A stretch of DNA of 64,000 bases from contig JACVTC010000058.1 of assembly GCA_016946835.1 (NCBI GenBank), positions 990,348 through 1,054,347 of the forward strand, given 5' to 3'. The notes under the pieces were generated by a model. That model was not told where the DNA came from. It ran no database searches and saw only the letters and a list, made by a program, of their open reading frames with translations. The position numbers were made by a program, and so were the translations under genes. Source of the stretch: Neocallimastix lanati (nom. inval.) (Eukaryota > Neocallimastigomycota > Neocallimastigomycetes > Neocallimastigales > Neocallimastigaceae). Position 1 is the first letter of the stretch. Each line of letters begins with the position of its first letter. Shown piece after piece: positions 21,185-63,884 of this stretch.

Positions 21185-21465
21185 TTACCAGACTCATACC
21201 ATACCATTTATCATATTGGGACACTTGTGCAAGACTTTTGAATAAAATTACCAGATTACGTGAGAAATCCATAATATTATTTGGAATTAATTTTAACCAG
21301 TAAGATACTATATTATAATATTCAGTTTACTCGACGGCACCACTACAATTGGAGAGAGCCAGTTCGACTTTACATACAATATTATAATAGAAATATCTTT
21401 TTATTAGAACATCTATTTCAAATATCATTATTTAAAATATTCAAAAGTAAATAATAAGTTACAAA
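20871..21465 (+). other. Second Gypsy-B 5' leader
   Basis: A repeat of the leader at 16843-17439, without an LTR before it. It holds two direct repeats of about 40 bp (CTACCAGTTTAAGGAAATAT...), a poly-A run of 41 (44 in the other two copies) and several TACCAG motifs. No ATG occurs in it. Confidence 0.85.
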
Positions 21466-21516
21466 TTGAACGAAGTTGAAGATTTAATTCAAAAATTCGA
21501 AAACCTTGATTTAGAA

Positions 21517-26286: not shown

Positions 26287-26323
26287 AGTTAATCTCGCAG
26301 GAGCTCGACTTAAAGGGCGAGAT

Positions 26324-27092
26324 TGTAAAGATATTATTAATATCTTTAAATAATTTTAATTAAATTTAATCATAAATTTAAGTAAAATTAAAATAAATTT
26401 ATTTGAAATCACGTGTATAAATTATTGAAAATATTTTTAACATAATTTCGATTTTTTCCAATCATACTAATAAATTAAAAATTTCTCTTGTGAAACTAGT
26501 ATTTGAAAATCATTTCTTTTTATGTAATTTAATTTAAATAATAAGAGTTAAGGTTTTTCACAAGATAAATTAACAACATGAAACTATGCAATTAGTCATG
26601 TTGAAACTTACGGCATTTTATGCTAAATTTATATTAAATAATTATGACAACTTTTATATTATTTTTAAATAGAAAATATATAATAAATTTACTAATAATA
26701 TTTAAATAATAAATAAATAATAAATGAACTCAATTAGAATTGATTATATTTATTTTAGTTATTAATTATAATTCTCTTTATTTAGTAATAGTTAATTATT
26801 TATTATTAGTTTAGGTTAGTATTGTTTTTAAATAAATAGCTAGATAATATAATTCAATAGGAATTATATATTATAAATGTAATAAGATAAAAATATAAAT
26901 AGTTATCAAATTTCATGTATTTTAATCGATGTAATTGTTATTAACGATTTCTTGTTAATAACACTTTAAAATAAATAAAGATTTTAATATTTAAAAAATT
27001 AATAAAACTTGTTCTTTAAAACTATTATTTTGTGTTTTAGTGTTATTATTGAAGTGTTGATTTATAATCTATTTTTTTACCAAAACTTTATA
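26324..27092 (+). repeat. Gypsy-B 3' LTR (first copy)
   Basis: 769 bp, directly after a purine-rich tract (AAAGGGCGAGAT). It ends in TTTATA followed by GATCC, the same Gypsy-A gag site found at the end of the other Gypsy-B. No matching GATCC lies at the left end of this Gypsy-B block. Confidence 0.92.
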
Positions 27093-28129
27093 GATCCAGA
27101 GTCAATAAGAACCTTAACCTTGCTTTCTTCAATCTCATTAGTCTTGATAAAAAAATCTAAAATATTTGTTTTTTGTTGATTTTTGTCTTCACAAGTAACT
27201 TCTCTCATCATTACAAGTTCTTCTTGTTCAGTAAGTCTTCTTATTCTACGCATATTTGAAAAGTTACCCATAACACTATCATCGGTATCTTTTCCCTTCA
27301 TAATTAACCTTAAGTTTTTTGGCTTTATCTTATTTGGACAATTGAATTTAAGATGTCCGGGTTGCTTACATAGGAAACAAACGCCCTTCTTTCTTTCTTC
27401 TGAATAATCTCTCTTTTCTTCTTTATACTTTATTGGACGGTAAGTATATTTTCTCTCGTTGGGACCTCTTTTTATACGGTAAAGGTCAATGTCCATTGGG
27501 TCGTTATGCGCAGCAGTATTACTAAAAAATTCTACCTTTTCGTTTCTTCTAATTAAGCTTTCTATATTTAATACTGTAGTAGTTAACCTATCAAGAGATC
27601 TAGGATTTGGATCGATTAAAGCAAGTTTCTCTCTTAAAGGTTGTTTTAATCCTCTAATGAACATATATATTTTTGCACTTTCATTAAAGTCAGAGTATTG
27701 AGCGATCCTTTGGAACTCTGAAATATATTCAAATACGTGCCCTTTCTTCTTCTGATAAATACTACACAGTTTACTATTGGCAACAATGGATTCGCTGGTA
27801 TAATCACCGAAGTTTGATTTTAACTCTTTCACGAAGTCATCGTATGAGTTAAGTAATGGACTATTATTCCTACGCAAGCAAGAGACCCATTCCAAAGGTT
27901 TCCCAAGCATGTAAGACATTAGGAATCTTACTCTTGCTGCATCGTTATTAAATTGATTTGGTCGGGATTCCATTGCTAGTTCTGCCCTTGTAAGGAATCC
28001 CTCAAGGTCGCATTTTCTTCCAATAAATGATGGCGGCTTATTAATTACACCAAATGCATTGTTTTCTTCGTGATTCTCCATTATCTCTTCCAAGGATAAT
28101 GTTTCAAAGAGTCTTTCTAAGTCTTCCAA
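27093..28129 (-). pseudogene. gag: Gypsy-A gag, interrupted copy 1
   Basis: Starts at ATG 28129 (MEDLERLFETLSLEE) and reads through a capsid-like region, zinc knuckle CFLCKQPGHLKFNC and the first residues of protease (VLIDSGS), where the Gypsy-B LTR cuts it; the open frame then runs a few codons into the LTR and stops at 27077. It is clearly related to Gypsy-B Gag, sharing the knuckle, ESAKIYMFI and DLYRIKRG motifs. It looks identical to 39871-40907 because both lie in the duplicated block. No pol follows it, so it could make only a Gag-like product. Confidence 0.88.
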
Positions 28130-28535
28130 TTTAAGAAAATTTATTAATTATTTATTTATTTATTTTTTGCTTTGTTTTGTTTTGTTTTCTCAAAATTAAT
28201 AACTTTATAATTATATTAGTAAAGTCGACCAGGTCTCTATCCAATTATGTATGGTGACGGTCGAGTAAACTAATTTTTTATAAATGACTTATTAATTTTG
28301 AAGAATTATATTTTTTCTGGTTATTAGAAGGAGTTTTTTCACTTGTTTTAGTCTGTATTACTAGATACAATGTTCATTTAAGCCCTGAATTGTGGTCCTC
28401 GATTACAGTCCAATTATTGATTCCAAATTGGTTAGCTCTGAATAAAAACTCTTGACCGGCGGTAGACCAAAAAAATCTTCAGCTTGCGGATTCTGTTATT
28501 GCAACGTATTTTGTAAAATAAAAGGTAATTGTTAT
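28130..28535 (-). other. Gypsy-A 5' leader (copy 1)
   Basis: About 400 nt between the internal Gypsy-A LTR and gag on the minus strand. Directly after the LTR it holds ATAACAATTACC (28535 downward), the self-primer site. There is a single ATG in the leader (CAT on plus near 28374), a very short upstream frame. It looks identical to 40908-41313. Confidence 0.8.
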
Positions 28536-29238
28536 TGTAAAAGAAAACACAAAAATAGATTACAATAACAAAATACAATAAATTTTATTTTATTAAAAAA
28601 TTTTTTATTAAAATATATTTTATTAATATTTAATATTTATTTGTTAAAATAACAATTACATCGAGAAAAAATGTGAAAAGTATCTTCTATTTATACTTTT
28701 CCTAAATACATTGATAATATATTATTTTATTTAAATTACATATATTTTAATTTAAAACTATCCTAATGAATTTTATTAAATAATAAATTTATAAACTATA
28801 GCTAAATTTAGAAAAATATAATTATTAATTAAACTAAATACTAAATAATTAAAATTAAGTACATTTATTATCTATTTATTATTTTAATATTATAAGTAAA
28901 GTCTTTATTTATTTTCGATTTAAAAACAATGTTAAAGGAGTCATGATTAAATTTTGAAACTTAATTTTCACAAAATAAATTATTAATTTATTTTGTTTTA
29001 AACTTTAATTAATTCATTTAAATTATTTTACAACAATAATTTTCTCAGAATTAAATTTTATAAAAATTATTACATTAAAAATTTATCTTGTGGCTTAAAG
29101 AATATAATTCAAAAATTTAGTTCATATGATTTATTTACTTTGTTTATTATTTTATAAATCAAAGATTAATTTACATTTTTGAATTACACAAGAAAAATTT
29201 TTAATTTAAAATGTGATTGGGATAATCACATCTTTACA
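28536..29238 (-). repeat. Gypsy-A LTR, internal copy
   Basis: 703 bp, TGTAAAAG...CATCTTTACA in plus orientation. On the minus strand a TATAAATAG box (28695-28687) lies 36 nt before GTAATTGTTAT (28659-28649). One side joins Gypsy-A leader and gag, the other joins the Gypsy-A pol end through a polypurine tract (AAGGAGGGAGAT, 29250-29239), so it acts as both the 3' LTR of one unit and the 5' LTR of the next. It appears identical to 41314-42016. Confidence 0.92.
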
Positions 29239-32843: not shown

Positions 32844-33613
32844 TGTAAAGATATTATTAATATCTTTAAATAATTTTAATTAAATTTAATCATAAATTTA
32901 AGTAAAATTAAAATAAATTTATTTGAAATCACGTGTATAAAATTATTGAAAATATTTTTAACATAATTTCGATTTTTTCCAATCATACTAATAAATTAAA
33001 AATTTCTCTTGTGAAACTAGTATTTGAAAATCATTTCTTTTTATGTAATTTAATTTAAATAATAAGAGTTAAGGTTTTTCACAAGATAAATTAACAACAT
33101 GAAACTATGCAATTAGTCATGTTGAAACTTACGGCATTTTATGCTAAATTTATATTAAATAATTATGACAACTTTTATATTATTTTTAAATAGAAAATAT
33201 ATAATAAATTTACTAATAATATTTAAATAATAAATAAATAATAAATGAACTCAATTAGAATTGATTATATTTATTTTAGTTATTAATTATAATTCTCTTT
33301 ATTTAGTAATAGTTAATTATTTATTATTAGTTTAGGTTAGTATTGTTTTTAAATAAATAGCTAGATAATATAATTCAATAGGAATTATATATTATAAATG
33401 TAATAAGATAAAAATATAAATAGTTATCAAATTTCATGTATTTTAATCGATGTAATTGTTATTAACGATTTCTTGTTAATAACACTTTAAAATAAATAAA
33501 GATTTTAATATTTAAAAAATTAATAAAACTTGTTCTTTAAAACTATTATTTTGTGTTTTAGTGTTATTATTGAAGTGTTGATTTATAATCTATTTTTTTA
33601 CCAAAACTTTATA
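32844..33613 (+). repeat. Gypsy-B 5' LTR (complete copy)
   Basis: 770 bp, TGTAAAG...CTTTATA, followed at once by the self-primer sequence ATAACAATTAC (33614-33624). Preceded by the target duplication GATCC. Confidence 0.93.
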
Positions 33614-33912
33614 ATAACAATTACCTTTTAAACAAACAAAAATACGTTATAAATCAATAAAAAATATTTAAAACACGTGACTCTTTTGTGGCTTATTTGT
33701 GGCTTGAATCAAGATATTTTTACCAGATATTTTTACCAAGGATTTTTAGAAGCTACCCACTTTTGACACTACCGACTTTGGAATACTCACAATTTTAGAT
33801 TATTGCTACCAGCTTTAGAATATCGCTACCAGTTTAAGGAAATATTCAACTCGATTCAGGCTATTCTACCAGTTTAAGGAAATATTCTACTCGATTCAGG
33901 CTAATTCTACCA

Positions 33913-33962
<50 letters not shown>

Positions 33963-34294
33963 TTACCAGACTCATACCATACCATTTATCATATTGGGAC
34001 ACTTGTGCAAGACTTTTGAATAAAATTACCAGATTACGTGAGAAATCCATAATATTATTTGGAATTAATTTTAACCAGTAAGATACTATATTATAATATT
34101 CAGTTTACTCGACGGCACCACTACAATTGGAGAGAGCCAGTTCGACTTTACATACAATATTATAATAGAAATATCTTTTTATTAGAACATCTATTTCAAA
34201 TATCATTATTTAAAATATTCAAAAGTAAATAATAAGTTACAAATTGAACGAAGTTGAAGATTTAATTCAAAAATTCGAAAACCTTGATTTAGAA
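33614..34294 (+). other. Gypsy-B 5' leader, ATG-free
   Basis: About 680 nt between the LTR and the first ATG. It starts with ATAACAATTACC, includes two direct repeats of about 40 bp at about 33827-33905, a 44-A run at 33917-33960, and repeated TACCAG motifs. There is no ATG in any frame until 34295. Confidence 0.85.
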
Positions 34295-37200
34295 ATGAAC
34301 CAAGCAAATAATCAAGGCTTCTTAAGAAACACTCAGAAAACAGTAAATGATCCACCACTGTTTTCTGGTATCAAGAGGGAATTCGACGGGTTCCTAACCA
34401 GAGCCGAAATTGCTATGGAATCCAACCCACATGGAATTAATAATGACATCGTAAAAGTCAAATTCATAATTTCTTATTTAATTGGAGAACCTTTAGACTG
34501 GGCTTCGTCTTTGAGACGCAACAATGACGAAATTTTGAATTCCTATGAAAATTTCATTAATGAACTTAGAGCTCGTTATGGTGAAGAAGAAGTTAATACT
34601 GTAATTGCTAATGGGAAACTTTGTTCAATCCGTCAACATAAGTTTGGCCGCGTTAACGATTACATTAATGAATTCAATAAAGTTGCAAGAAACTCAGACT
34701 TCAACGAGTCTGCAAAAATATACATGTTTATCAAAGGATTACATTATAAAATGAGAGAACATCTTGCCGTGGTCAATCCGAACCCAAACAATTTAAGAGC
34801 TTTGTTTACTGACGTTATTAGCATTGAGAGTTTAACCAAAAGACACAGTATTAATGAATTTTATTTTCATCAATACAATCACCGAAACAACGCTAGTTCC
34901 AGTACACAACTCACTAATAATGATCCCATGGAAGTTGACCTCTATCGAATCAAGAGAGGTCAAAGGAATACCAACTATTTCCCATCCAACAAGAAATTGT
35001 ACCAGGAGAATGTTAACTCTAAGGAAGAAGAAAGAAGAAAAGGTCTTTGCTACTATTGTAAGCAACCAGGGCATCTTAAATTTAATTGCCCGAACAAGAA
35101 GAGGCCCGCTACAGTTAAAATGATCAACAAGAAAGAAAGAAATGATAATATTGCATCTACTAGCTTAAGAAGAATCAGAAGAATCAACAGCCAAGAAGAT
35201 ATTTTGAAAGTCAGAAAAATTGTTGAAGAGCAAAACTCACTCTTGACCAAGAAAAGTAACATTATTGATTTTTATATCAAAACAAACGATACAGAAGAAG
35301 TAAAGGCAAGAGTTTTGATTGATTCTGGATCAGATCTTAACTTTATTCACCCAGAATTTGCGAAGGCTTTTGGAATCAAAACCCAACAAATTGAAGAACC
35401 ATTCCGTGTTACTGGTCTTGGTTACGGAATATCAACAGTTAAAAAGGAAACGGAGAAGTGCATTTTACGTTTAAAAAATCACTTAGAAATCATTCAATTG
35501 TATGTACTCAGAATTCCTGATGTTGATATTATTTTAGGTCTACCTTGGATTGAGAAGCATTCGCCTTATAATTACCACGACGCAAAGAAGATCTCCTTTG
35601 GCTCAGGATTTTGCGCTAGACACTGTAATAACGGTAAAAGAAAAAGAAAGAACAAGATCAAGAACAAGAAAAAGAACAAAGGAAAAGAATCTGCTACCGA
35701 CTTGGAAGAAAATAAAATTATTGAAGACTCAAGAAAAAGAAAATCTTTCTTTGAATCCGATTCCGAATCTGATTCTGAAGAAGAAATTTCTATTCGTGGC
35801 CGCCGAACTCGTATTAGAACTTGTACTGAATTTATTAATAGTGATAGCGATAGTGATATTAATGATACTTTTATGTTAGATAATTTTAGTGATAGCATTA
35901 GTGATAGCGATAATTTTAGTGATAGTGATGATATTATTGTTATGAATTGTGATAGTAAAATTAGTAAAAATAGTTTAAAGATCTTAAAGAAAATTTGTGA
36001 ATCAAGTAAATGTAAGAAATTAAATGTAATTGAAAAATGTAATAATGAAAATAATAATTTAAATAAAGATGATGAAAAGGTCGAAGTACCTGAAATCTAT
36101 TTGATGTTTAAAGAAGTGTTTAATGAAAATAATTGTAATGTGTTACCTCCGCATCGTAATTATGATTGTGAGATTAAATTAAAAGATAATTGTAGTTTAT
36201 TTTATGGACCGTTGTATCCTTTAACTGAGACGGAGAGAGAAGAATTAAAGAAATATTTAGAAGAAAATTTAAAAAAGGGTTTTATTAGAAAATCTTCTTC
36301 TCCCGCTGGAGCACCTATTTTATTTGTTAGAAAAAAGGATGGTACATATAGACTAGTTATTGATTATAGAAAATTAAATGAAATGACCATCCGTAACTCT
36401 TACCCTCTTCCTTTAATTAGTGAATTGTTGGATAGAGTTAAAGGTGCTAAATATTTTACTAAGTTAGATTTAAAATCTGCCTATAACTTAGTAAGAATTA
36501 AAGAAGGTGACGAGTACAAAACTGCCTTTCGCACAAGATATGGGCACTTTGAATATCTCGTTATGCCTTTTGGGCTTAAGAATGCCCCTGCTACATTCCA
36601 ACATTTTATAAATGATGTTCTCAGTGATTACTTAGATGATTTTGTAATCTCTTATATTGATGACATTTTAATTTATTCTAATACTTTAGAAGAACATCAT
36701 GTACATGTCAAGAAAGTTTTAAGAAAATTGTTAGAGAATCATTTAGTTGTTAAATTAGAAAAGTGTGAATTTGATGTAACTGAAACTACTTTTCTTGGTT
36801 ATGTTTTATCAAGAGATGGAATTAAAATGGATAAAGAAAAAGTTAAAGCAATTTTAGATTGGCCTGTTCCAACAAACGTTAAAGAAATTCAATCGTTTAT
36901 TGGACTTTGTAATTATTACAGAATTTTTATTAAAGACTTTGCGAAAATTGCAAATCCTCTCCACAAATTAACTAGAAAAAATGTTCCTTTTAATTGGAGT
37001 TCTGAACAACAAAAAGCGTTTGATACTTTAAAAGAATTATTTACTACTGCTCCTATTTTGAAACATCCTGATAGCAACAAACAATTCATTGTTGAAACTG
37101 ATGCTAGTAATTTTGCTGTTGGTGCAATTCTTTCTCAGGAATTTGATGGGCATTTGCATCCAATTGCTTTTATTTCTACTAGCTTAACTAAATCCCAAAG

Positions 37201-39064
37201 AAATTACCCTATCTATGACAAAGAACTTCTTGCTATTAAAGTTGCATTGGAAGGATGGAGACATTACTTAGAAGGAGCTCGCCATCAGTTTATTATTTAT
37301 ACTGATCATAAGAATTTAACTTTCCCTCGAAAACCTGAACTTCTTTCCCAACGCCAAATTCGTTGGTATGAATTCTTATCTAGATTTGATTTTAAACTAA
37401 TTTACAGAGCTGGTAAAAAGTCAGGTAAACCAGATATTTTATCCAGACGTAGTGATCATTTATTTGCTAGTGTTCGTCCTATTTCATGCGTTATTAATTC
37501 ATGTAGTTTTAAGAATGATTCTTTAATCTCCTCTATTCATGATTCTCTAGCTAATGATGAATTCTATTGCAAAATAACTGAATTTCTTAAAAATGATAAA
37601 TCAAAAGATCCCCCTTTTAGTAAAATCGATAAATTTTCTCTTGACAAAAATGGTTATTTACTTTTTGAAAATTTAATTTATGTTCCCAATAAAATTAGAA
37701 TAAGAGTTTTAGAACTCCATCATGACTCTATTTCTGCTGGTCATTTTGGAATTAATAAAACTATTGAACTTATTTCTCGTAATTTCTGGTGGCCTAAATT
37801 ACAAAAAGATGTTAAAATGTTTATTAAATCTTGTGAAATTTGTTCAAAATCCAAAATCCCAAGACATAAGCCATATGGTTTACTTTCTCCACTTTCTACA
37901 CCCAATAGAGCCTGGTCTGCTATCTCTATGGATTTTATTGTTGAACTTCCGAAATCCAAAGATATGACCACTATAATGGTTGTTGTGGATCGCTTAACTA
38001 AAATGGCTCATTTTATACCATTTAGATGTCTTCCTACTGCTTCTATTGCTGCTGATTCTTTCATTGCTAATATTTTTAAACTTCATGGTTTCCCCGATTC
38101 TATTATTTCTGATCGTGGTTCTCAATTTACCTCTGATTTTTGGAATCGTCTTTGCTCTCTTTTAAATATTAAGCATTCTTTTTCTACTGCTAATCACCCG
38201 CAGACTGATGGTCAAACGGAGAGGGTGAACTCGATATTGGAACAATATCTTCGTTGTTTCATTAACGAAAAACAAAATAATTGGTTTGATTTATTACCTT
38301 TTGCAGAATTTTCTTATAACAATACTTTACAACAATCAATAAATCAATCACCATTTTTTGCAAATTATGGATTTAATCCAAAGTTTAATCCTGAGATTCC
38401 TTCAAACGAGAATCCACATAGAGCTGAAAAAAGAATATTGAATATTAACGAAAACATAAAGTTTTTAAAAGAAAATTTAGAACAAGCGAAAAAGACTTAT
38501 AAAAAATATGCAGATTTAAAAAGAATGGATTCTCCTGATTTTAAAGTAGGAAATAAAGTTTATCTTTTAAAGGGTAATACAACAAAGAAAAATAAAAAAT
38601 TATCTGATCAACTAATAGGACCCTTTGAAATCATTAGAAAAGTTAGTGATTTAGCGTATGAACTTAAACTTCCTAATAATATGCGCTGTCACCCTGTATT
38701 CCATGTTTCGCTCCTCGAACCTTACCATGAAAATGAATTCCCAAACAGAAGAAATACTCGTAGAAGAAATATTAATCTTACTACGGATACAATTAATAGA
38801 AGTCCTGAAAGAATAATTAAAATGAAAACTTTTAACAATAAAAATCGTTACTTGATTAAATGGAAAGGATGCGATTCTAATGAAAATACTTGGATCGATG
38901 AAGATCAAATTTTTGATAAACAATTAATACAAGAATACTATAGAAAAGAAAAGAAGAATAAATCTTCGAATATTAACAATGAATTTTGCCAACTACCTGA
39001 AGATTCGAACGAGTATTATGTTAGGCATAAATATCAACCTTTTGTGATCGATCTTCCTTCCTAA
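34295..39064 (+). CDS. gag-pol: Gypsy-B Gag-Pol polyprotein, chromovirus (intact, in complete element)
   Basis: The predicted protein is the same, residue for residue as far as I can see, as that at 21517-26286: gag with CCHC knuckle, DSG protease, RT (YIDD), RNase H, D59D35E integrase and C-terminal chromodomain in one frame of 1589 codons from ATG 34295 (open from TTG 34244). The chromodomain is expected to direct integration to particular chromatin. Unlike the other copy, this one has both LTRs and a target duplication, so it could be the autonomous source copy. Confidence 0.94.
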   Translation: MNQANNQGFLRNTQKTVNDPPLFSGIKREFDGFLTRAEIAMESNPHGINNDIVKVKFIISYLIGEPLDWASSLRRNNDEILNSYENFINELRARYGEEEVNTVIANGKLCSIRQHKFGRVNDYINEFNKVARNSDFNESAKIYMFIKGLHYKMREHLAVVNPNPNNLRALFTDVISIESLTKRHSINEFYFHQYNHRNNASSSTQLTNNDPMEVDLYRIKRGQRNTNYFPSNKKLYQENVNSKEEERRKGLCYYCKQPGHLKFNCPNKKRPATVKMINKKERNDNIASTSLRRIRRINSQEDILKVRKIVEEQNSLLTKKSNIIDFYIKTNDTEEVKARVLIDSGSDLNFIHPEFAKAFGIKTQQIEEPFRVTGLGYGISTVKKETEKCILRLKNHLEIIQLYVLRIPDVDIILGLPWIEKHSPYNYHDAKKISFGSGFCARHCNNGKRKRKNKIKNKKKNKGKESATDLEENKIIEDSRKRKSFFESDSESDSEEEISIRGRRTRIRTCTEFINSDSDSDINDTFMLDNFSDSISDSDNFSDSDDIIVMNCDSKISKNSLKILKKICESSKCKKLNVIEKCNNENNNLNKDDEKVEVPEIYLMFKEVFNENNCNVLPPHRNYDCEIKLKDNCSLFYGPLYPLTETEREELKKYLEENLKKGFIRKSSSPAGAPILFVRKKDGTYRLVIDYRKLNEMTIRNSYPLPLISELLDRVKGAKYFTKLDLKSAYNLVRIKEGDEYKTAFRTRYGHFEYLVMPFGLKNAPATFQHFINDVLSDYLDDFVISYIDDILIYSNTLEEHHVHVKKVLRKLLENHLVVKLEKCEFDVTETTFLGYVLSRDGIKMDKEKVKAILDWPVPTNVKEIQSFIGLCNYYRIFIKDFAKIANPLHKLTRKNVPFNWSSEQQKAFDTLKELFTTAPILKHPDSNKQFIVETDASNFAVGAILSQEFDGHLHPIAFISTSLTKSQRNYPIYDKELLAIKVALEGWRHYLEGARHQFIIYTDHKNLTFPRKPELLSQRQIRWYEFLSRFDFKLIYRAGKKSGKPDILSRRSDHLFASVRPISCVINSCSFKNDSLISSIHDSLANDEFYCKITEFLKNDKSKDPPFSKIDKFSLDKNGYLLFENLIYVPNKIRIRVLELHHDSISAGHFGINKTIELISRNFWWPKLQKDVKMFIKSCEICSKSKIPRHKPYGLLSPLSTPNRAWSAISMDFIVELPKSKDMTTIMVVVDRLTKMAHFIPFRCLPTASIAADSFIANIFKLHGFPDSIISDRGSQFTSDFWNRLCSLLNIKHSFSTANHPQTDGQTERVNSILEQYLRCFINEKQNNWFDLLPFAEFSYNNTLQQSINQSPFFANYGFNPKFNPEIPSNENPHRAEKRILNINENIKFLKENLEQAKKTYKKYADLKRMDSPDFKVGNKVYLLKGNTTKKNKKLSDQLIGPFEIIRKVSDLAYELKLPNNMRCHPVFHVSLLEPYHENEFPNRRNTRRRNINLTTDTINRSPERIIKMKTFNNKNRYLIKWKGCDSNENTWIDEDQIFDKQLIQEYYRKEKKNKSSNINNEFCQLPEDSNEYYVRHKYQPFVIDLPS

Positions 39065-39101
39065 AGTTAATCTCGCAGGAGCTCGACTTAAAGGGCGAGA
39101 T

Positions 39102-39870
39102 TGTAAAGATATTATTAATATCTTTAAATAATTTTAATTAAATTTAATCATAAATTTAAGTAAAATTAAAATAAATTTATTTGAAATCACGTGTATAAAT
39201 TATTGAAAATATTTTTAACATAATTTCGATTTTTTCCAATCATACTAATAAATTAAAAATTTCTCTTGTGAAACTAGTATTTGAAAATCATTTCTTTTTA
39301 TGTAATTTAATTTAAATAATAAGAGTTAAGGTTTTTCACAAGATAAATTAACAACATGAAACTATGCAATTAGTCATGTTGAAACTTACGGCATTTTATG
39401 CTAAATTTATATTAAATAATTATGACAACTTTTATATTATTTTTAAATAGAAAATATATAATAAATTTACTAATAATATTTAAATAATAAATAAATAATA
39501 AATGAACTCAATTAGAATTGATTATATTTATTTTAGTTATTAATTATAATTCTCTTTATTTAGTAATAGTTAATTATTTATTATTAGTTTAGGTTAGTAT
39601 TGTTTTTAAATAAATAGCTAGATAATATAATTCAATAGGAATTATATATTATAAATGTAATAAGATAAAAATATAAATAGTTATCAAATTTCATGTATTT
39701 TAATCGATGTAATTGTTATTAACGATTTCTTGTTAATAACACTTTAAAATAAATAAAGATTTTAATATTTAAAAAATTAATAAAACTTGTTCTTTAAAAC
39801 TATTATTTTGTGTTTTAGTGTTATTATTGAAGTGTTGATTTATAATCTATTTTTTTACCAAAACTTTATA
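39102..39870 (+). repeat. Gypsy-B 3' LTR (complete copy)
   Basis: 769 bp after the purine tract AAAGGGCGAGAT, ending TTTATA and followed by GATCC (39871-39875), the second half of the target duplication. Confidence 0.93.
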
Positions 39871-40907
39871 GATCCAGAGTCAATAAGAACCTTAACCTTG
39901 CTTTCTTCAATCTCATTAGTCTTGATAAAAAAATCTAAAATATTTGTTTTTTGTTGATTTTTGTCTTCACAAGTAACTTCTCTCATCATTACAAGTTCTT
40001 CTTGTTCAGTAAGTCTTCTTATTCTACGCATATTTGAAAAGTTACCCATAACACTATCATCGGTATCTTTTCCCTTCATAATTAACCTTAAGTTTTTTGG
40101 CTTTATCTTATTTGGACAATTGAATTTAAGATGTCCGGGTTGCTTACATAGGAAACAAACGCCCTTCTTTCTTTCTTCTGAATAATCTCTCTTTTCTTCT
40201 TTATACTTTATTGGACGGTAAGTATATTTTCTCTCGTTGGGACCTCTTTTTATACGGTAAAGGTCAATGTCCATTGGGTCGTTATGCGCAGCAGTATTAC
40301 TAAAAAATTCTACCTTTTCGTTTCTTCTAATTAAGCTTTCTATATTTAATACTGTAGTAGTTAACCTATCAAGAGATCTAGGATTTGGATCGATTAAAGC
40401 AAGTTTCTCTCTTAAAGGTTGTTTTAATCCTCTAATGAACATATATATTTTTGCACTTTCATTAAAGTCAGAGTATTGAGCGATCCTTTGGAACTCTGAA
40501 ATATATTCAAATACGTGCCCTTTCTTCTTCTGATAAATACTACACAGTTTACTATTGGCAACAATGGATTCGCTGGTATAATCACCGAAGTTTGATTTTA
40601 ACTCTTTCACGAAGTCATCGTATGAGTTAAGTAATGGACTATTATTCCTACGCAAGCAAGAGACCCATTCCAAAGGTTTCCCAAGCATGTAAGACATTAG
40701 GAATCTTACTCTTGCTGCATCGTTATTAAATTGATTTGGTCGGGATTCCATTGCTAGTTCTGCCCTTGTAAGGAATCCCTCAAGGTCGCATTTTCTTCCA
40801 ATAAATGATGGCGGCTTATTAATTACACCAAATGCATTGTTTTCTTCGTGATTCTCCATTATCTCTTCCAAGGATAATGTTTCAAAGAGTCTTTCTAAGT
40901 CTTCCAA
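39871..40907 (-). pseudogene. gag: Gypsy-A gag, interrupted copy 2
   Basis: Same as 27093-28129: ATG 40907, capsid-like region, CCHC knuckle, break in the protease DSG at the Gypsy-B LTR; the open frame runs on to a stop at 39855 in the LTR. Here the rest of the polyprotein continues on the far side of Gypsy-B (32843 downward), so this copy shows the original gag-pol continuity: removing Gypsy-B restores the GSDLNF protease sequence. Confidence 0.9.
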
Positions 40908-41313
40908 TTTAAGAAAATTTATTAATTATTTATTTATTTATTTTTTGCTTTGTTTTGTTTTGTTTTCTCAAAATTAATAACTTTATAATTATATTAGTAA
41001 AGTCGACCAGGTCTCTATCCAATTATGTATGGTGACGGTCGAGTAAACTAATTTTTTATAAATGACTTATTAATTTTGAAGAATTATATTTTTTCTGGTT
41101 ATTAGAAGGAGTTTTTTCACTTGTTTTAGTCTGTATTACTAGATACAATGTTCATTTAAGCCCTGAATTGTGGTCCTCGATTACAGTCCAATTATTGATT
41201 CCAAATTGGTTAGCTCTGAATAAAAACTCTTGACCGGCGGTAGACCAAAAAAATCTTCAGCTTGCGGATTCTGTTATTGCAACGTATTTTGTAAAATAAA
41301 AGGTAATTGTTAT
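40908..41313 (-). other. Gypsy-A 5' leader (copy 2)
   Basis: Leader of the outer Gypsy-A unit, with ATAACAATTACC directly after the LTR (41313 downward on the minus strand). Same as 28130-28535. Confidence 0.8.
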
Positions 41314-42016
41314 TGTAAAAGAAAACACAAAAATAGATTACAATAACAAAATACAATAAATTTTATTTTATTAAAAAATTTTTTATTAAAATATATTTTA
41401 TTAATATTTAATATTTATTTGTTAAAATAACAATTACATCGAGAAAAAATGTGAAAAGTATCTTCTATTTATACTTTTCCTAAATACATTGATAATATAT
41501 TATTTTATTTAAATTACATATATTTTAATTTAAAACTATCCTAATGAATTTTATTAAATAATAAATTTATAAACTATAGCTAAATTTAGAAAAATATAAT
41601 TATTAATTAAACTAAATACTAAATAATTAAAATTAAGTACATTTATTATCTATTTATTATTTTAATATTATAAGTAAAGTCTTTATTTATTTTCGATTTA
41701 AAAACAATGTTAAAGGAGTCATGATTAAATTTTGAAACTTAATTTTCACAAAATAAATTATTAATTTATTTTGTTTTAAACTTTAATTAATTCATTTAAA
41801 TTATTTTACAACAATAATTTTCTCAGAATTAAATTTTATAAAAATTATTACATTAAAAATTTATCTTGTGGCTTAAAGAATATAATTCAAAAATTTAGTT
41901 CATATGATTTATTTACTTTGTTTATTATTTTATAAATCAAAGATTAATTTACATTTTTGAATTACACAAGAAAAATTTTTAATTTAAAATGTGATTGGGA
42001 TAATCACATCTTTACA
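41314..42016 (-). repeat. Gypsy-A 5' LTR
   Basis: 703 bp, abutting the GTAGT duplication (42017-42021) and copia integrase sequence. It carries the TATA box and the GTAATTGTTAT site at the positions matching the internal LTR (offset 12778). Confidence 0.93.
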
Positions 42017-44091: not shown

Positions 44092-44106
44092 ATGAGACTC
44101 TTAATC
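44092..44106 (-). promoter_or_regulatory. Copia primer-binding site for a tRNA-Lys(CUU) internal fragment
   Basis: The 15 bases next to the 5' LTR read ATGAGACTCTTAATC on plus, which is the sequence of the anticodon arm of eukaryotic tRNA-Lys(CUU) as I know it (anticodon CTT in the middle). The minus-strand RNA would therefore pair with that arm, as Drosophila copia and Ty5 do with half-tRNA-iMet. Confidence 0.65.
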
Positions 44107-44349
44107 TGTTAAGGAGTCAATATAAGATATGATGTGTACACAACAAAATGTATTATTATTTAATTAAATTTAATTTATTATTTATTAATTTATATGATTT
44201 AAAAAAGTATTTAAAAAGACTCAAAATATTAATTTCATAAAAAAATTTTCTTTTTATATTTTACATACAAATTATTACTTAATCAAATATTATAAATATT
44301 TATAATACTTTAATGTACAAAAGTTTAAATATTATGTTGAACTTTAACA
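44107..44349 (-). repeat. Copia 5' LTR
   Basis: 243 bp, apparently identical to 13013-13255, followed by ATATA and an (AT)n run. The run makes the outer target duplication less decisive than usual. Confidence 0.93.
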
Positions 44350-57557: not shown

Positions 57558-58208
57558 TGTCAAGGATTTGATACAAATTAATTTATATTTAATACCACAA
57601 AAATAACAATTTAATTATAAATATAATTTGTACTCCTTAAATCCTTGTACCGTTCATAACCAAATTAATATTGTATTACATATTAATTAATATTATCCCT
57701 TTTATACATTATTGAACCCCTAATATATTAATTGATTAATATTGTATTACATATTAATTAACATTATCCCTTTTTATATTAATTAATATAGTTGAATATT
57801 ATTTATAAAAATTGTTTTTTATTAATTATATTATTTTATATATTTTTATTATCTTATATTATATATGTATTATTCTATTACTTTATATATTAAAATTATA
57901 TTTTATATTGTTATCTTTAAATTAGTATTTATTAAAATATATTATTAAATATTTTATATTGTTTTTCAAAATATAAAAGAACTAAAAAATATTCTTTTTT
58001 AAATCTTTGTAAGATTATTATTTACAAATAATCTGATAACTTTATAATAAAACATATTAAATAAAAATATAGTTAATTAAAAGTTTAATAATAAAATAAT
58101 ATTTTATATTTGAATAAATCAATTTATAAAAATAAAATAATATCAAAAGGTTATTAGATTAAAGGCTTCCAATCAAGTTTACCCTTTAATCTAAGTACCA
58201 ACTTAACA
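57558..58208 (+). repeat. Gypsy-D 5' LTR
   Basis: 651 bp from TGTCAAGG to CTTAACA. A TATA box (TATAAAAG, 57972-57979) lies 37 nt before GTAAGATTAT (58009-58018), the inferred start of the RNA. Confidence 0.95.
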
Positions 58209-58219
58209 ATAATCTTACC
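58009..58219 (+). promoter_or_regulatory. Gypsy-D self-complementary primer pair
   Basis: GTAAGATTAT in the LTR (58009-58018) is the exact reverse complement of the first 10 nt after the LTR, ATAATCTTAC (58209-58218). This follows the Tf1/sushi self-priming pattern. No ATG occurs between 58009 and the gag start at 58243. Confidence 0.7.
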
Positions 58220-58242
58220 GCTATTTTAGAAACTTCCTTGGA

Positions 58243-59466
58243 ATGCCTAAAATTGGCCTAAGACGCTCGGGAATGTATTCAGCTAGATCGGATGAAGAAA
58301 TGGATATGAATAAAGAAGACTCAGTACAACAATTGCGATCCGAAGCCACCCAAGCTTGTACCACCTTAGCAGAAGGTGTTCAACAGTTAAGAAATGATAC
58401 CTCACAAGCTTGTAATAGTATAGTTTCTGGGGTGAATGAAAACTTCGTTTCCAAAGAAGACTTACAAAATTACCATCAAGAGGTAATGAAACAATTCGGA
58501 GCTTATGATAAAATGAATAATGAAATATTGGCCTCTTTAGAATCTTTGAAAAAGGCTACCCTCTATTTTAAGCATGAATTATGTAATAAAACTCAAGTAG
58601 AAAATACTTCTTCTGGTGCTACCTCGTCGATACCGTTGACATCTGGAAATCCTACGGTAAACCTCCATTCTGTTTTCGATGATAATATCTCAACTACTAC
58701 AAGATATGACAATGATCATGATGTTATCATGCAATCTGCTTACCCTATTAATATTCCTCAAGTTCCCGATCCAGGTTTGTTTTCAGGTGATATTTCTGAA
58801 ACCGAACTTTTCTGTCAACTGTGTGGGGACACATTTAAAACCTATCCATGTAAGTCTTGGCCTGAAGATTCGAAAATCAACTTTGTGCAATCAAGATTAA
58901 GAGAAGCTGCTAGAAGTTGGTACCAAACAAAATATTCCAGTAGTCCTCCTGCTTCCCTAGAGGCTCTTCTTAATGAATTAAAAGAAGCTTTTCCTGATGT
59001 TGTCAGCAAAAAGTTAAAGAAAATTAATTTAATAAATCTTAAACATTCTCATGGTAATATTAAGGACTATATCGATTCTTTCCGTAAACTAACAGCTGAT
59101 CTTGGTTGGCCTGAAGAACCATTAGTATTATTTTTCTATAATGGTCTTCATCCAAAATTTAAAGAAGAAATTAATAAAATGGAGAAGTTTCCAGAGAAAA
59201 TAGAAGAAATTACAACAAAGTGCATATTGTTTGAATCTTCTCAAGAAACTAAATTAAAGATAAATCAATTAACCAGCAATAAAAATTATAAGAGAAAGAA
59301 CTCTCATTCTTATCCCAATAGTGAAAACAAGAATAAGAAGAATAACAATTATTACAATCATAGTAAAAATAATAACTTCCATAATAATAAATCTAAGGTT
59401 AATTCCAGTTACAACAACCGAGAAAATTATGTTACCGAAGTCCAAAAAATTAACTCAAAAAACTAG
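58243..59466 (+). CDS. gag: Gypsy-D Gag
   Basis: 407 residues from ATG 58243, the first ATG of the inferred transcript. The N-terminal half is helical (repeats of QLR..TQAC/EGVQQLRND). A retrotrans_gag capsid-like domain spans about 180-350 (PDPGLFSGD, FVQSRLREAARSWYQ, INLKHSHGNIKDYIDSFRKL, FYNGLHPKFKEEI). The C-terminus is rich in Lys and Asn and lacks a CCHC zinc knuckle; it may bind RNA through basic charge instead. It ends in TAG directly after the slippery site, so Pol is expressed as Gag-Pol by -1 frameshift. Confidence 0.9.
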   Translation: MPKIGLRRSGMYSARSDEEMDMNKEDSVQQLRSEATQACTTLAEGVQQLRNDTSQACNSIVSGVNENFVSKEDLQNYHQEVMKQFGAYDKMNNEILASLESLKKATLYFKHELCNKTQVENTSSGATSSIPLTSGNPTVNLHSVFDDNISTTTRYDNDHDVIMQSAYPINIPQVPDPGLFSGDISETELFCQLCGDTFKTYPCKSWPEDSKINFVQSRLREAARSWYQTKYSSSPPASLEALLNELKEAFPDVVSKKLKKINLINLKHSHGNIKDYIDSFRKLTADLGWPEEPLVLFFYNGLHPKFKEEINKMEKFPEKIEEITTKCILFESSQETKLKINQLTSNKNYKRKNSHSYPNSENKNKKNNNYYNHSKNNNFHNNKSKVNSSYNNRENYVTEVQKINSKN

Positions 59467-59489
59467 ATAATGGACTTCCCAAGAAGTCC
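59457..59489 (+). promoter_or_regulatory. -1 programmed ribosomal frameshift signal (gag/pol)
   Basis: The slippery heptamer A AAA AAC (59457-59463) is in the gag frame, followed at once by the gag stop TAG (59464-59466). After an 8-nt spacer comes a perfect 7-bp hairpin, GGACTTC (59472-59478) with GAAGTCC (59483-59489) and loop CCAA. A -1 slip continues with CTA GAT AAT GGA, which is the pol frame. Confidence 0.8.
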
Positions 59490-62400
59490 TCTCCGATTAA
59501 AACTATTCAATATAATTATCCAACTTTAAACCCTCCTCTTCCTAATTCTTTCTTTTTGTTTAAATCATTTATCCCAACAATAAACAAAAGGAACAAAAAC
59601 ATTAAATTACAAACCAAATCAATGTTAGATTGTGGTTCTTACTGCAATTTTATTTCTACCAATTTAATCTCTCGGTTAAATCTTGTACCTCAAAAACTTA
59701 ATAATAAAATATATATAAAAGGTATTAGTGGTGATACAGATTCCATTAATGAATTTGTGTCTTTAAATTTTCAACTAAAAATCAAAATTAACAATACGTT
59801 TCATTTAATCAAATTTAAAGAAAAATTCCTTGTGTCAAAACATATTCCAGTGGATTTACTCCTTGGAAATCAATTTATGAAAAACTATAAAATACATTTT
59901 AGTTATGATAATCATTATCTTTACTCTACTTTTAAAATCTCAAAATTTAAATCAAGAATTATAAAGAATTTTAAACAAAATGCGAATTCAATTAATTTTT
60001 ATGAAGGATTACCCTATAATTACAACTTTTTAATCTATTCTTTTCTTTCAAATAAGGTATCAGAGGATTCTGAAGAACCTGATATTGAGCGTATTCCTGA
60101 ACAGTATAAAGACCTTGCAATAGTCTTCAGTAAAAAGGAAGCAGATAAGCTTCCTCCCCATCGTTTAACGGACTGTGAGATCAATCTTCAACCAGGTGCT
60201 ACTTTACATTATGGACCAATCTACCCGCTTACATTGGAAGAATCAGAAGTTTTAAAAGATTACATAAAGGAAAACGAAAAGAAAGGATTTATTAGAGAAT
60301 CTCACTCCCCAGCCAGCTATCCTGTTCTCTTTCAAAAAAAGAGTGATGGTTCTCTCCGACTCTGCGTTGACTACAAACGTTTAAATGCGGTTACTATTAG
60401 AAATTCCTATCCTTTACCGCTCATCAACGACATTATTGAACGAGTCAAAGGAGCCAAGTACTTTACTAAATTGGACTTGCGCTCCGCATATAATTTAATT
60501 CGTATAAAGGAAGGCGATGAATATAAAACAGCTTTCCGTACTAAGTATGGACATTACGAATATTTAGTAATGCCATTTGGTCTTAAAAATGCACCTGCAA
60601 TCTTCCAATCTTTTATTAACTCTGTCCTTCGTCCATTCTTAGAGAAATCGGTAATACTCTACCTAGATGACATTCTAATTTATTCTAATTCATTAGATGA
60701 TCATCATCAAACTGTACGTGAGGTTCTCAAAAAGCTTATTGACAATAATTTATATGCTAAACTTTCGAAATGTGAATTCGATAAAGAGGAAGTCGAATTC
60801 CTTGGACATATCATTTCTGGTTCTGGTGTGTCCACTGATCCAAAGAAGATCAAATCAATCAAAGAATGGTCCATTCCAAAAAACGTAAAAGAGGTTCAAA
60901 GGTTTCTTGGTCTTTGCAATTACTATAGAAGATTCGTAAGGAATTTTGCTGCTATTGCTAAACCTTTGCATGCTTTAACCAAGAAAGGAAGGAAGTTTGT
61001 TTGGTCTAAAGATTGTGATACCTCCTTCTCAATTCTCAAAAAACGTTTAACTTCTTCCCCTCTCCTCATGCATCCTGACTTAACAAAACCTTTTATTGTT
61101 GAGTGCGATGCTAGTAACTTTGCTATTGGAGCAGTTCTTTCCCAGTATGATAATGATAATAAGCTTCATCCTATTGCTTATTTTTCTCGTAGTCTTAACA
61201 ATGCCGAAATAAACTATTCGATTACCGATAAGGAACTTTTATCAATTAAAGAAGCTTTCTCATCATGGCGTCACCTTTTGTTAGGTGCTAAATTCAAGAT
61301 TAAAGTTTTTACTGACCATAGAAATCTTCTATATACCCTTGGAGGGAAGATAGGTAATCAACGTCAACATCGTTGGCATCTATTCTTCCAAGAATACGAC
61401 TTTGAACTTATCTATCGCCAAGGTAAAAAGAATGGCAAACCCGATTCGTTATCCAGAAGACCAGACTACCAAAAGGAAGATATAGAGGATAAACCTGAGT
61501 TTATCTTAGACAGTAAGAATATTGGTAAAATCCCATGTTTAATTAGTATAACTAACGATCTTCTCAATAATATTAAAATAAACTTAAAGAATGATAAGGT
61601 TGCTGAGGATCTTCGTATATATTTTTCTGAAAATAATGTCTCTCAAGGTTTCCCTTATAAACCATTTCGCAAAATGAATAAGTTTAAATTAGAAAATGAT
61701 TTAATATTATACAACAATCTTATTTACATATCAGATCAACTTCGTTTAGATATTTTAACTCGTTATCATGAGAAACCTGCTGCGGGTCATTTTGGTGTCA
61801 AAAGAACTTTGGAGTTGATCTCAAGAAACTTTTGGTGGCCCAAGATGGAAGATGATGTTAAGAATTTTGTAAAGTCGTGTGAAACATGTATGAGAAACAA
61901 AAAATCTAGGCACCGAAAATTTGGGTTACTTCAACCGCTTGACGTTCCAGAAAGACCTTGGAAATCAATCGAAATTGATTTCTTATGTGGTCTTCCACCA
62001 TCCAAAGGTAATGCGGTGATTATGGTTGTAGTTGATAGATTTTCAAAAATGATACACCTTATTCCCTTCAAAGATATTCCAAATTCCGTACAAACAGCCA
62101 AAGCTTTTATCAATAATATCTATAAGCTCCATGGTCTACCCTATGATATTATTACGGATAGAGGTTCACAGTTTACGAGTGAACTTTGGCAAGAATTTCT
62201 ATTCTTATTAAATATTAAATCGAAAATAGCTACTACTGACCACCATGAAACCGTAGGTCAAGTTGAACGATGCAATTCTTTCATCGAACAATACCTTCGC
62301 TGTTTCTCAAGATCTTTCTATCATGATGATTGGGTTGATTTTCTTCCACTTGCTGAATTTGCTTATAACAACTCAATTCACCCTTCCACTAACGAAACTC

Positions 62401-63032
62401 CCTTTTTTATCAACTATGGATTTCATCCTTACATGGATGAATATACACTACTCCCTACTTGTAACATTAATCATAAAATGGTTCAAAAAGTTTATGAAAG
62501 TTTTAATCATGTTAAAGAAGTTCTTCTCCGATCCCAAGAGCTATATAAACGTTCTGCTGATAGAAAAAGAATTACCGCTCCTTCTTACAACATTGACGAT
62601 TTGGTGTGGATTCAAGCTCCCCCTTCGTTAAATATAGAATCAAGCTCAAAACTAGCTCCATGCAAATTTGGTCCATACAAAGTAACCAATGTTTTACATA
62701 ATAATAATTATGAAATTGAACTTAAAAATTCACCCTTTCCTAAGCATCATAATGTTTTCCACGTCTCTGAACTCGAACCATTCACACCAGTGCCTGAAAA
62801 GTTTAGAAAACGATATAAAGATCCTGAGTCTATTAAGGATATTATTGAAATTGCGGGTTTTAGAACTAACTATAAGAAGAAACAATACGAATATAAAATC
62901 CGTTATAAATATCGTTCCTCCTATAATTGGGTATCTTCTTCTGAAGTTGAAGATAATCCAAGAAACCAAAATATTTTTATTAAATACATTAATAATAATA
63001 GGAAACCAGTCTCGATCTCATATAGTAATTAA
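59463..63032 (+). CDS. pol: Gypsy-D Pol (protease, RT, RNase H, integrase, chromo-like)
   Basis: The frame is open from the frameshift site; the first ATG-type start (about 59556) need not be used. Domains: protease with the unusual active-site triad DCGS (SMLDCGSYCNFIS) instead of DSG/DTG; RT with YLDDILIYS (about 60660); RNase H with ECDASNFAIGA (about 61101); integrase zinc finger (HEKPAAGHFG...CETC), core Asp motifs EIDFLCGLP and TDRGSQFTS and the Glu in VGQVERCN, where most relatives have DGQTERVN; C-terminal GPYKV module, HVSELEPF, and a weak chromodomain (YEYKIRYKYRSSYNWVSSSEVED). About 1190 codons. It is more distant from Gypsy-A and -B than these are from each other. Confidence 0.9.
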   Translation, partial: LDNGLPKKSSPIKTIQYNYPTLNPPLPNSFFLFKSFIPTINKRNKNIKLQTKSMLDCGSYCNFISTNLISRLNLVPQKLNNKIYIKGISGDTDSINEFVSLNFQLKIKINNTFHLIKFKEKFLVSKHIPVDLLLGNQFMKNYKIHFSYDNHYLYSTFKISKFKSRIIKNFKQNANSINFYEGLPYNYNFLIYSFLSNKVSEDSEEPDIERIPEQYKDLAIVFSKKEADKLPPHRLTDCEINLQPGATLHYGPIYPLTLEESEVLKDYIKENEKKGFIRESHSPASYPVLFQKKSDGSLRLCVDYKRLNAVTIRNSYPLPLINDIIERVKGAKYFTKLDLRSAYNLIRIKEGDEYKTAFRTKYGHYEYLVMPFGLKNAPAIFQSFINSVLRPFLEKSVILYLDDILIYSNSLDDHHQTVREVLKKLIDNNLYAKLSKCEFDKEEVEFLGHIISGSGVSTDPKKIKSIKEWSIPKNVKEVQRFLGLCNYYRRFVRNFAAIAKPLHALTKKGRKFVWSKDCDTSFSILKKRLTSSPLLMHPDLTKPFIVECDASNFAIGAVLSQYDNDNKLHPIAYFSRSLNNAEINYSITDKELLSIKEAFSSWRHLLLGAKFKIKVFTDHRNLLYTLGGKIGNQRQHRWHLFFQEYDFELIYRQGKKNGKPDSLSRRPDYQKEDIEDKPEFILDSKNIGKIPCLISITNDLLNNIKINLKNDKVAEDLRIYFSENNVSQGFPYKPFRKMNKFKLENDLILYNNLIYISDQLRLDILTRYHEKPAAGHFGVKRTLELISRNFWWPKMEDDVKNFVKSCETCMRNKKSRHRKFGLLQPLDVPERPWKSIEIDFLCGLPPSKGNAVIMVVVDRFSKMIHLIPFKDIPNSVQTAKAFINNIYKLHGLPYDIITDRGSQFTSELWQEFLFLLNIKSKIATTDHHETVGQVERCNSFIEQYLRCFSRSFYHDDWVDFLPLAEFAYNNSIHPSTNETPFFINYGFHPYMDEYTLLPTCNINHKMVQKVYESFNHVKEVLLRSQELYKRSADRKRITAPSYNIDDLVWIQAPPSLNIESSSKLAPCKFGPYKVTNVLHNNNYEIELKNSPFPKHHNVFHVSELEPFTPVPEKFRKRYKDPESIKDIIEIAGFRTNYKKKQYEYKIRYKYRSSYNWVSSSEVEDNPRNQNIFIKYINNNRKPVSISYSN

Positions 63033-63094
63033 AAAAAAAAAAAAATTTTTTTCTTTAAAAATATATATTCAACACAATTTATTTCTCCAACTAA

Positions 63095-63225
63095 TTTGAA
63101 ATTCACATGGCCAATTGAACATTTATGTTCAAGTGAATTTCAAATACTTCTTGAGTACTCTTTTGAATAAACTAATATCAAAAATATTAGTATTCTTGAA
63201 TTCGCCTGGAATGCGAATTCTTGGA
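63095..63225 (+). promoter_or_regulatory. Three-hairpin cluster and purine tract before the Gypsy-D 3' LTR
   Basis: Inverted repeats in order: TTTGAAATTCAC with GTGAATTTCAAA (12 bp, enclosing TTGAACAT/ATGTTCAA), ACTAATAT with ATATTAGT (8 bp), and GAATTCGC with GCGAATTC (8 bp). They are followed by a purine-rich GGAGAGAG next to the LTR, which probably primes plus-strand synthesis. Confidence 0.65.
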
Positions 63226-63233
63226 GAGAGCGT

Positions 63234-63884
63234 TGTCAAGGATTTGATACAAATTAATTTATATTTAATACCACAAAAATAACAATTTAATTATAAATAT
63301 AATTTGTACTCCTTAAATCCTTGTACCGTTCATAACCAAATTAATATTGTATTACATATTAATTAATATTATCCCTTTTATACATTATTGAACCCCTAAT
63401 ATATTAATTGATTAATATTGTATGACATATTAATTAACATTATCCCTTTTTATATTAATTAATATAGTTGAATATTATTTATAAAAATTGTTTTTTATTA
63501 ATTATATTATTTTATATATTTTTATTATCTTATATTATATATGTATTATTCTATTACTTTATATATTAAAATTATATTTTATATTGTTATCTTTAAATTA
63601 GTATTTATTAAAATATATTATTAAATATTTTATATTGTTTTTCAAAATATAAAAGAACTAAAAAATATTCTTTTTTAAATCTTTGTAAGATTATTATTTA
63701 CAAATAATCTGATAACTTTATAATAAAACATATTAAATAAAAATATAGTTAATTAAAAGTTTAATAATAAAATAATATTTTATATTTGAATAAATCAATT
63801 TATAAAAATAAAATAATATCAAAAGGTTATTAGATTAAAGGCTTCCAACCAAGTTTACCCTTTAATCTAAGTACCAACTTAACA
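63234..63884 (+). repeat. Gypsy-D 3' LTR
   Basis: 651 bp, same limits as the 5' LTR (TGTCAAGG...CTTAACA) and followed by AATAA and the resumed satellite. Confidence 0.95.

What the first reader, a model, noticed from the sequence alone, without database searches (positions are those of the whole stretch)
57972..58219. A third family, Gypsy-D, carries a different but matching self-primer pair
Here the pair is GTAAGATTAT (58009-58018) and ATAATCTTAC (58209-58218). Its sequence differs from the A/B pair but is complementary to itself and lies at the same 37-nt distance from a TATA box. Independent covariation of both halves across families is strong evidence that pairing matters, and suggests self-priming is the rule for gypsy elements in this genome.
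Basis: partly seen in the sequence, partly recalled or inferred. Interest (0 to 1): 0.75.

Follow-up and report, generated by a model that had tools for sequence, protein, structure and literature searches.

The report
Retrotransposon primed by its own RNA
A virus-like jumping gene in what looks like a gut-fungus genome carries, just after its left repeat, a short site that exactly matches the expected start of its own RNA, so it can probably start copying itself into DNA without borrowing a cell tRNA; one extra, always identical letter next to that site may be a trace of the RNA's chemical cap.

Summary
GTAAGATTATT (58009-58019) and AATAATCTTAC (58208-58218) are an exact 11-nt self-complement, 37 nt after TATAAAAG, in the 5' LTR and at the LTR end of a Ty3/gypsy element (57558-63884). 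The same layout holds in 13 gypsy families sampled from this genome, with 8 primer sequences: 12 exact (10-13 nt), 1 with one G:U. Shuffled LTRs and swaps between families almost never give it. Best reading: Tf1/sushi-type self-primed reverse transcription, a known mechanism. 'The rule for gypsy elements' is too wide: one Ty3/gypsy family has a tRNA-Ala primer site instead, and the copia elements looked at match the tRNA-Lys(CUU) anticodon arm. New regularity: one extra C directly after the PBS, opposite a T or C in the LTR, in 13 of 13 families. Of PBS-word sites fetched, 30 of 32 with the C and 0 of 30 without it have a matching RNA start upstream. I propose that the m7G cap of the self-primer templates this C. 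That fits cap copying by MMLV reverse transcriptase (PMC6885630) but is untested here.

The parts
57558..58208 (+). 5' LTR of the D element (TGT...ACA)
   Evidence: matches the 3' LTR at 99.5%
57972..57979 (+). TATA box TATAAAAG
58009..58019 (+). inferred transcript start and self-primer GTAAGATTATT; preceded by T (pyrimidine-purine initiator)
   Evidence: the start site is inferred, not measured
58012..58034 (+). local hairpin at the start of R (58012-58019 with 58027-58034) that could compete with PBS pairing
   Evidence: -4.9 kcal/mol, z -1.7: weak
58208..58218 (+). primer binding site AATAATCTTAC, overlapping the last A of the LTR
58219..58219 (+). extra C directly after the PBS; not complementary to the T at 58008; would face the cap G of the self-primer
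   Evidence: C in 13 of 13 families
58243..59466 (+). gag ORF, 407 aa (PF03732)
59556..63032 (+). pol ORF: protease (weak), RT, RNase H, integrase, SH3_Tf2-1, degenerate chromodomain-like C-terminus
63234..63884 (+). 3' LTR with a second copy of the R start (63685-63695), not followed by a PBS
33452..33464 (+). family A self-primer GTAATTGTTATTA (LTR 32844-33613)
33612..33625 (+). family A PBS TAATAACAATTAC plus extra C at 33625
28648..28659 (-). family B self-primer GTAATTGTTATT (LTR 28536-29238)
28524..28536 (-). family B PBS AATAACAATTAC plus extra C at 28524

Best explanation
D is a Ty3/gypsy LTR retrotransposon that primes its own reverse transcription. Transcription starts at the G of GTAAGATTATT, 37 nt after the TATA box. 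[quoted passage not shown] RNase H is thought to cut after nt 10 or 11, and the freed 3' end starts minus-strand DNA at the end of the LTR. Shown: the exact complement, its place at the LTR end, the TATA spacing, its covariation across families, and the constant extra C. Inferred: the start site, the cut, the priming, and the origin of the extra C. For that origin I propose that when plus-strand DNA copies the still attached capped primer, the reverse transcriptase also copies the m7G cap as C; that C then enters the PBS and is renewed each cycle. The confidence given here is for self-priming; the cap part is rated in the section on the most novel reading.
For: Exact complements of 10-13 nt in 12 of 13 families (11, L111), and 10 of 11 plus one G:U in the thirteenth, 1406. 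Eight primer sequences; shuffles and family swaps almost never reproduce them. The LTR base before the start is T in 11 and C in 2 of 13, and the start is a purine in 13 of 13, as for a Pol II initiator. Extra C in 13 of 13 families, against C frequency 0.194 at +2 to +30 and a variable +2 base (G2 T5 C4 A2). Genome-wide word test: 102 places read ACAATAATCTTACC and 32 read ACAATAATCTTAC + A/G/T. Of the 32 +C places fetched, 30 have GTAAGATTATT with at most 1 mismatch 80-400 nt upstream; of the 30 non-C places fetched, none does. The extra C is also present where the RNA would start with A (family 1542). PMC6885630 (passages) argues that the m7G cap can template a single C. The same inspection of LTR ends did bring out tRNA-type sites in other elements of this genome.
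Against: No transcript ends, reverse transcription products or transposition were seen. Predicted folds favour the primer:PBS helix strongly in only 2 of 11 families (D 0.93, 1542 0.97), weakly in 1439 (0.34), and below 0.05 in 8 of 11, where other structures win. The PBSs were not compared with a full tRNA set of this genome. The families are related, so 13 of 13 is not 13 independent events. Two of the 32 +C places fetched have no R start by the criterion (L161, L180), and one of the 30 that do (L169) lacks a TATA box and may be chance. The extra C could be conserved for another reason. Whether Tf1 and sushi elements elsewhere have it was not checked.
Confidence: 0.88

Rival explanations
1. 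Self-priming is right, but the extra C has nothing to do with the cap: it is a conserved contact for reverse transcriptase, integrase or RNA folding, or simple inheritance from one ancestor.
For: The self-primed families compared share RT kinship (D to A 59%, to 1301 80%, to 1338 76%).
Against: The base next to it varies within and between families, and the PBS itself has changed several times while the C stayed. Simple inheritance alone does not explain why one site is frozen between a co-varying helix and a free flank.
Confidence: 0.4
2. The PBS pairs with a tRNA or another cellular RNA and the LTR match is a by-product.
For: tRNA-type sites exist in the same genome in copia elements and in one gypsy family. 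A full comparison of the PBSs with this genome's tRNAs was not made.
Against: None of the 13 PBSs starts with TGG at the LTR end (for 12 families, for L111), and the eight primer types each match their own LTR at the inferred RNA start.
Confidence: 0.04
3. Chance complementarity in AT-rich sequence.
For: Single 10-nt matches do arise by chance in such LTRs: 774 of 26,000 shuffles. A 13-nt low-complexity match misled a first search in family 1492.
Against: With position, TATA spacing and start type added: 50 of 26,000 shuffles and 0 of 142 family swaps, against 11 of 13 real families by the same test. Of the two that fail, 1542 does so because the 10-nt test window begins one base inside its primer, and 1406 because of its G:U.
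Confidence: 0.01

Closest known systems
Tf1/sushi group of Ty3/gypsy retrotransposons (Tf1, Tf2, Tj1, Tosmo1-3, Tcry1)
   Same: PBS next to an LTR ending in CA, complementary to the start of the element's own RNA; SH3_Tf2-1 domain; chromodomain in family A. PMC10085805 and PMC4600332, passages read.
   Different: D has two ORFs and only a degenerate chromodomain-like end. The primer:PBS helix of the 'pretzel' is not predicted in most families. Whether Tf1-group PBSs carry the extra C was not checked.
Tcn1 chromoviruses of mosses and club-mosses, and TAR (Ty1/copia) of plants
   Same: Self-priming predicted from sequence (PMC6317226, passages read).
   Different: Other hosts; TAR is Ty1/copia; no extra C is mentioned in the passages read.
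Cap-templated +C addition by MMLV reverse transcriptase (template switching, CAGE)
   Same: One C added opposite the m7G cap (PMC6885630, PMC6280763, passages read).
   Different: A laboratory observation with a retroviral enzyme, not a retrotransposon PBS.

Membership tests
Tf1/sushi self-primed Ty3/gypsy elements | PBS complementary to about the first 11 nt of the element's RNA | tested here: met
   11 nt exact in D; 10-13 nt exact in 12 of 13 families. The RNA start itself is inferred.
Tf1/sushi self-primed Ty3/gypsy elements | No tRNA-type (TGG) PBS at the LTR end; LTR ends in CA | tested here: met
   exception to CA among the 13: family A ends in TATA
Tf1/sushi self-primed Ty3/gypsy elements | Ty3/gypsy pol order and Tf2-1-like SH3 domain | tested here: met
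   D and A:
Tf1/sushi self-primed Ty3/gypsy elements | Chromodomain at the integrase end | tested here: inconclusive
   Family A: Pfam Chromo 1.2e-11. D: no Pfam Chromo hit at E up to 1. Profile comparison of the C-termini of D and A relatives gives 97% probability, but it includes part of the SH3 region.
Tf1/sushi self-primed Ty3/gypsy elements | Three-duplex 'pretzel' structure of the RNA leader | tested here: inconclusive
   Primer:PBS helix predicted in D and 1542, partly in 1439, not in 8 of 11; the two flanking duplexes were not scored.
Tf1/sushi self-primed Ty3/gypsy elements | Groups with Tf1/sushi in an RT-IN tree | not tested
   No Tf1 or sushi reference sequence was on hand and no tree was built.
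Tf1/sushi self-primed Ty3/gypsy elements | RNase H cut of the primer and priming in particles | not testable with these tools
   needs experiment
tRNA-primed LTR retrotransposons | PBS complementary to a tRNA 3' end or half | tested here: inconclusive
   No TGG at the LTR end in D, so no ordinary 3'-end site; a match to an inner part of some tRNA was not searched for. A tRNA site is present in family 1366 and in copia of the same genome.

The most novel reading that the evidence does not exclude
The primer binding site of these elements encodes the cap of their own messenger RNA. The self-primer keeps its m7G cap, reverse transcriptase copies the cap as a C during plus-strand synthesis, and this C must match, or is fixed into, the PBS. 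An RNA modification that no genome encodes would thus leave one heritable DNA letter in every copy and would mark the transcription start to the base.
Probability: 0.42. Interest if true: 0.8.

Novelty: new member of a known kind. Interest (0 to 1): 0.55.

Why it matters
Self-priming is demonstrated in fission yeast Tf1 and inferred from sequence in other groups (PMC4600332, PMC6317226, passages read). Here it can be read from sequence in 13 families of one genome, beside two tRNA-type sites, so three priming modes can be compared in one host. If the extra C is a copy of the cap, it is sequence evidence for a step of the cycle (copying the capped primer), and it gives an annotation rule for finding self-primed elements and their transcription starts from DNA alone.

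Tried and rejected
A free longest-match search picked a low-complexity 13-mer in family 1492; restricting it to the LTR end gave GAGTTTTTATT. The 1532 rve family proved to be copia. Relatives in viral contigs: none confirmed in two scans. Forty-three gypsy-bearing contigs from bacterial and archaeal assemblies showed no LTR pair, and the scan gave no convincing PBS, so the extra C could not be tested in other species. A tRNA family search returned 63 scored places, nearly all with the same score and length, and was of no use for matching primers; pattern searches plus ARAGORN settled the two tRNA cases. R-start hairpins: z below -2.5 in 4 of 12 families, so not general. Of 20 5' pieces fetched in the hope of a gypsy junction, 15 showed the pair (for 1301 with the 3' LTR), 1 (1366) had a tRNA PBS, 1 (L059) was copia, and 3 (L041, L045, L110) had no recognisable LTR in the piece. 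The 1406 junction comes from a 3' piece (L042), not from a 5' piece.

Full report
What is there. The finding lies in an LTR retrotransposon at 57558-63884, near the right end of the window. Its LTRs (57558-58208 and 63234-63884) are 99.5% identical. Between them are a gag ORF (58243-59466) and a pol ORF (59556-63032) with RT, RNase H and integrase in Ty3/gypsy order and a Tf2-1-like SH3 domain. Forty places in the genome, the window's own copy among them, match a 501-base query across the LTR-PBS junction over its full length at 95-100% (only 40 candidates were scored). The genome has 199 Mb in 762 contigs. Pol relatives at 64-68% identity carry the label Orpsp1_1 in EukProt, which I take from memory to be Orpinomyces, and the window is 77% A+T.

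The pair. The match is 11 nt: GTAAGATTATT at 58009-58019 with AATAATCTTAC at 58208-58218, the latter overlapping the last A of the LTR. TATAAAAG starts at 57972. The base before the R start is T and the start is G, the pyrimidine-purine step of a Pol II initiator. Seven other D copies (L001, L003-L008) and the window's own copy fetched again (L002) have the same R start, PBS and following C.

Other families. I sampled gypsy families through domain searches that score only the best candidates and fetched short 5' and 3' pieces. Thirteen families were scored. LTR ends were fixed by comparing LTR copies in nine (D, A, 1645, 1416, 1439, 1542, 1492, 1345, 1301) and not independently in four (B, 1338, 1406, L111). 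Twelve have an exact complement of 10-13 nt beginning 0-2 nt before the end of the LTR, with the R start 34-54 nt after a TATA[AT]A box; 1406 has one G:U in 11. There are eight primer types: GTAAGATTATT (D, 1338, L111), GTAAGGTTAT (1301), GTAATTGTTATT (A, B), GTATTAGTTATT (1645), GTGTTTTTATT (1416), GTGCTTTTATT (1439, 1345, 1406), GAGTTTTTATT (1492) and AGTTGGAAAAT (1542). The number names are open-frame lengths from the search tables; L111 is a locus id.

Controls. Dinucleotide-shuffled LTRs gave mean longest complements of 6.2-8.0 nt. Over 13 families, 774 of 26,000 shuffles gave any 10-nt complement at the LTR end, and 50 of 26,000 gave one with a TATA box and a pyrimidine-purine start. Of 142 swaps of PBS and LTR between families of different primer type, 1 gave any 10-mer and 0 gave one with TATA and start. 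By the same strict test 11 of 13 real families pass; 1542 fails because the 10-nt test window begins one base inside its primer, and 1406 because of its G:U.

Not the rule for all gypsy elements. Family 1366 has a gypsy-type RT (my reading of the translation; about 41% identical to D and A over RT). Eight nt after its LTR it carries TGGTGGAGAATCCGGGCG, the complement of the 3' end of the genome's tRNA-Ala(AGC) plus CCA. Three copia elements were looked at. The window's and L116, after verified LTR ends, and L118, by the word only, carry GATTAAGAGTCTCA, complementary to the anticodon arm of the nuclear tRNA-Lys(CUU). A paper on ascomycete copia elements gives ATTAAGAGTCT as the PBS of FunCo1 (PMC5445492, passage read). 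So three kinds of primer site coexist.

The extra C. In all 13 families the base just after the PBS complement is C, although the LTR base at that place is T (11) or C (2), so it does not pair with the DNA-encoded RNA. C frequency at +2 to +30 is 0.194, and the +2 base is G2 T5 C4 A2. If the eight primer types were independent this would have a chance of about 2 in a million; they are related, so the true figure is weaker. As a further test I searched the genome for the PBS word. ACAATAATCTTACC occurs 102 times (control, pattern reversed: 8). ACAATAATCTTAC followed by A, G or T occurs 32 times (control 10). I fetched 29 regions holding 30 of the 32 non-C places, and 31 regions holding 32 of the 102 +C places. 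Of the 100 +C places listed, I left out 37 that lie on D copies and 14 that lie on 1338-type copies, by coordinates, and 17 others for lack of calls (one of these is the L111 junction already seen). With at most one mismatch to GTAAGATTATT 80-400 nt upstream as the criterion, 30 of 32 +C places and 0 of 30 non-C places have an R start (L169 among the 30 lacks a TATA box and may be chance; L161 and L180 are the two without). The 30 fall into 6 clusters with varied bases after the C. The C therefore goes with genuine self-primed junctions.

Mechanism. Self-priming of the Tf1 type explains the pair. PMC10085805 (passages) describes it: the RNA's 5' end pairs with the PBS within a three-duplex 'pretzel', and the LTRs shown there end in CA. 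That RNase H cuts the primer is in the title of a Levin paper cited there (seen in a reference list); that the primer stays on Tf1 cDNA is recalled. [quoted passage not shown] also PMC6280763). The C would then have to match the minus strand at the plus-strand jump, or be written into one strand of the new copy, which would keep it C. This last chain is inference. The extra C in 1542, whose RNA would start with A, fits a cap rather than a run of G.

Results against. RNA folding predicts the primer:PBS helix with high probability only in D and 1542, at 0.34 in 1439, and below 0.05 in 8 of 11 families. D's chromodomain is not recognised by Pfam. The extra C could not be tested outside this genome. 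The PBSs were not compared with a full tRNA set. Literature searches (listings; passages of eight papers read) showed no report of such a C. The one original Tf1 paper that I asked for (PMC230564) is not held and I did not try the others, so novelty of the C is not established.

Noticed in passing
44092-44106 (minus), LTRs 44107-44349 and 13013-13255: A copia element, split by later insertions, has a PBS complementary to the anticodon arm of nuclear tRNA-Lys(CUU), which suggests half-tRNA priming; the 14-mer GAGACTCTTAATCT occurs 1889 times in the genome, in contexts not all checked.
   Followed up: partly
L061/L114/L062/L115/L122 (G000:C312): A Ty3/gypsy family with a canonical tRNA-Ala(AGC) 3'-end PBS 8 nt after the LTR, unlike its self-primed relatives in the same genome.
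   Followed up: yes
20872-29238 and 33647-42016: An 8.4-kb stretch is repeated at 99.96% identity, and 16843-20874 is repeated again at 20872-24897: recent duplication or assembly effect around nested gypsy elements.
   Followed up: no
G000:C287, C340, C173: Small contigs hold gypsy RNase H domains at a constant period (about 6,912 and 5,677 nt), as in head-to-tail arrays of elements: recombination products, circles or assembly artefacts.
   Followed up: no
LTRs of 1416 (L044), 1406 (L042) and 1492 (L051), near their 5' ends: The U3 part looks like a tRNA-derived stretch (box A- and box B-like words), by eye only; ARAGORN and Rfam (E up to 0.1) found no tRNA in these LTRs.
   Followed up: partly
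L058:1633-1691: A tRNA-like match (RF00005, 47 bits) lies about 75 nt downstream of the 3' LTR of a 1301 copy; possible integration near Pol III genes, one case only.
   Followed up: no
58154-58194: A strong inverted repeat (TTAGATTAAAGG / CCTTTAATCTAA) in U5 just before the PBS, possibly like the U5 stem described for Tf1 and retroviruses.
   Followed up: no
G000:C188, C251, C266, C350 and others: The tRNA-Lys(CUU) and tRNA-Ala(AGC) words recur together at regular spacings on many small contigs, which suggests tandem tRNA-gene arrays.
   Followed up: no
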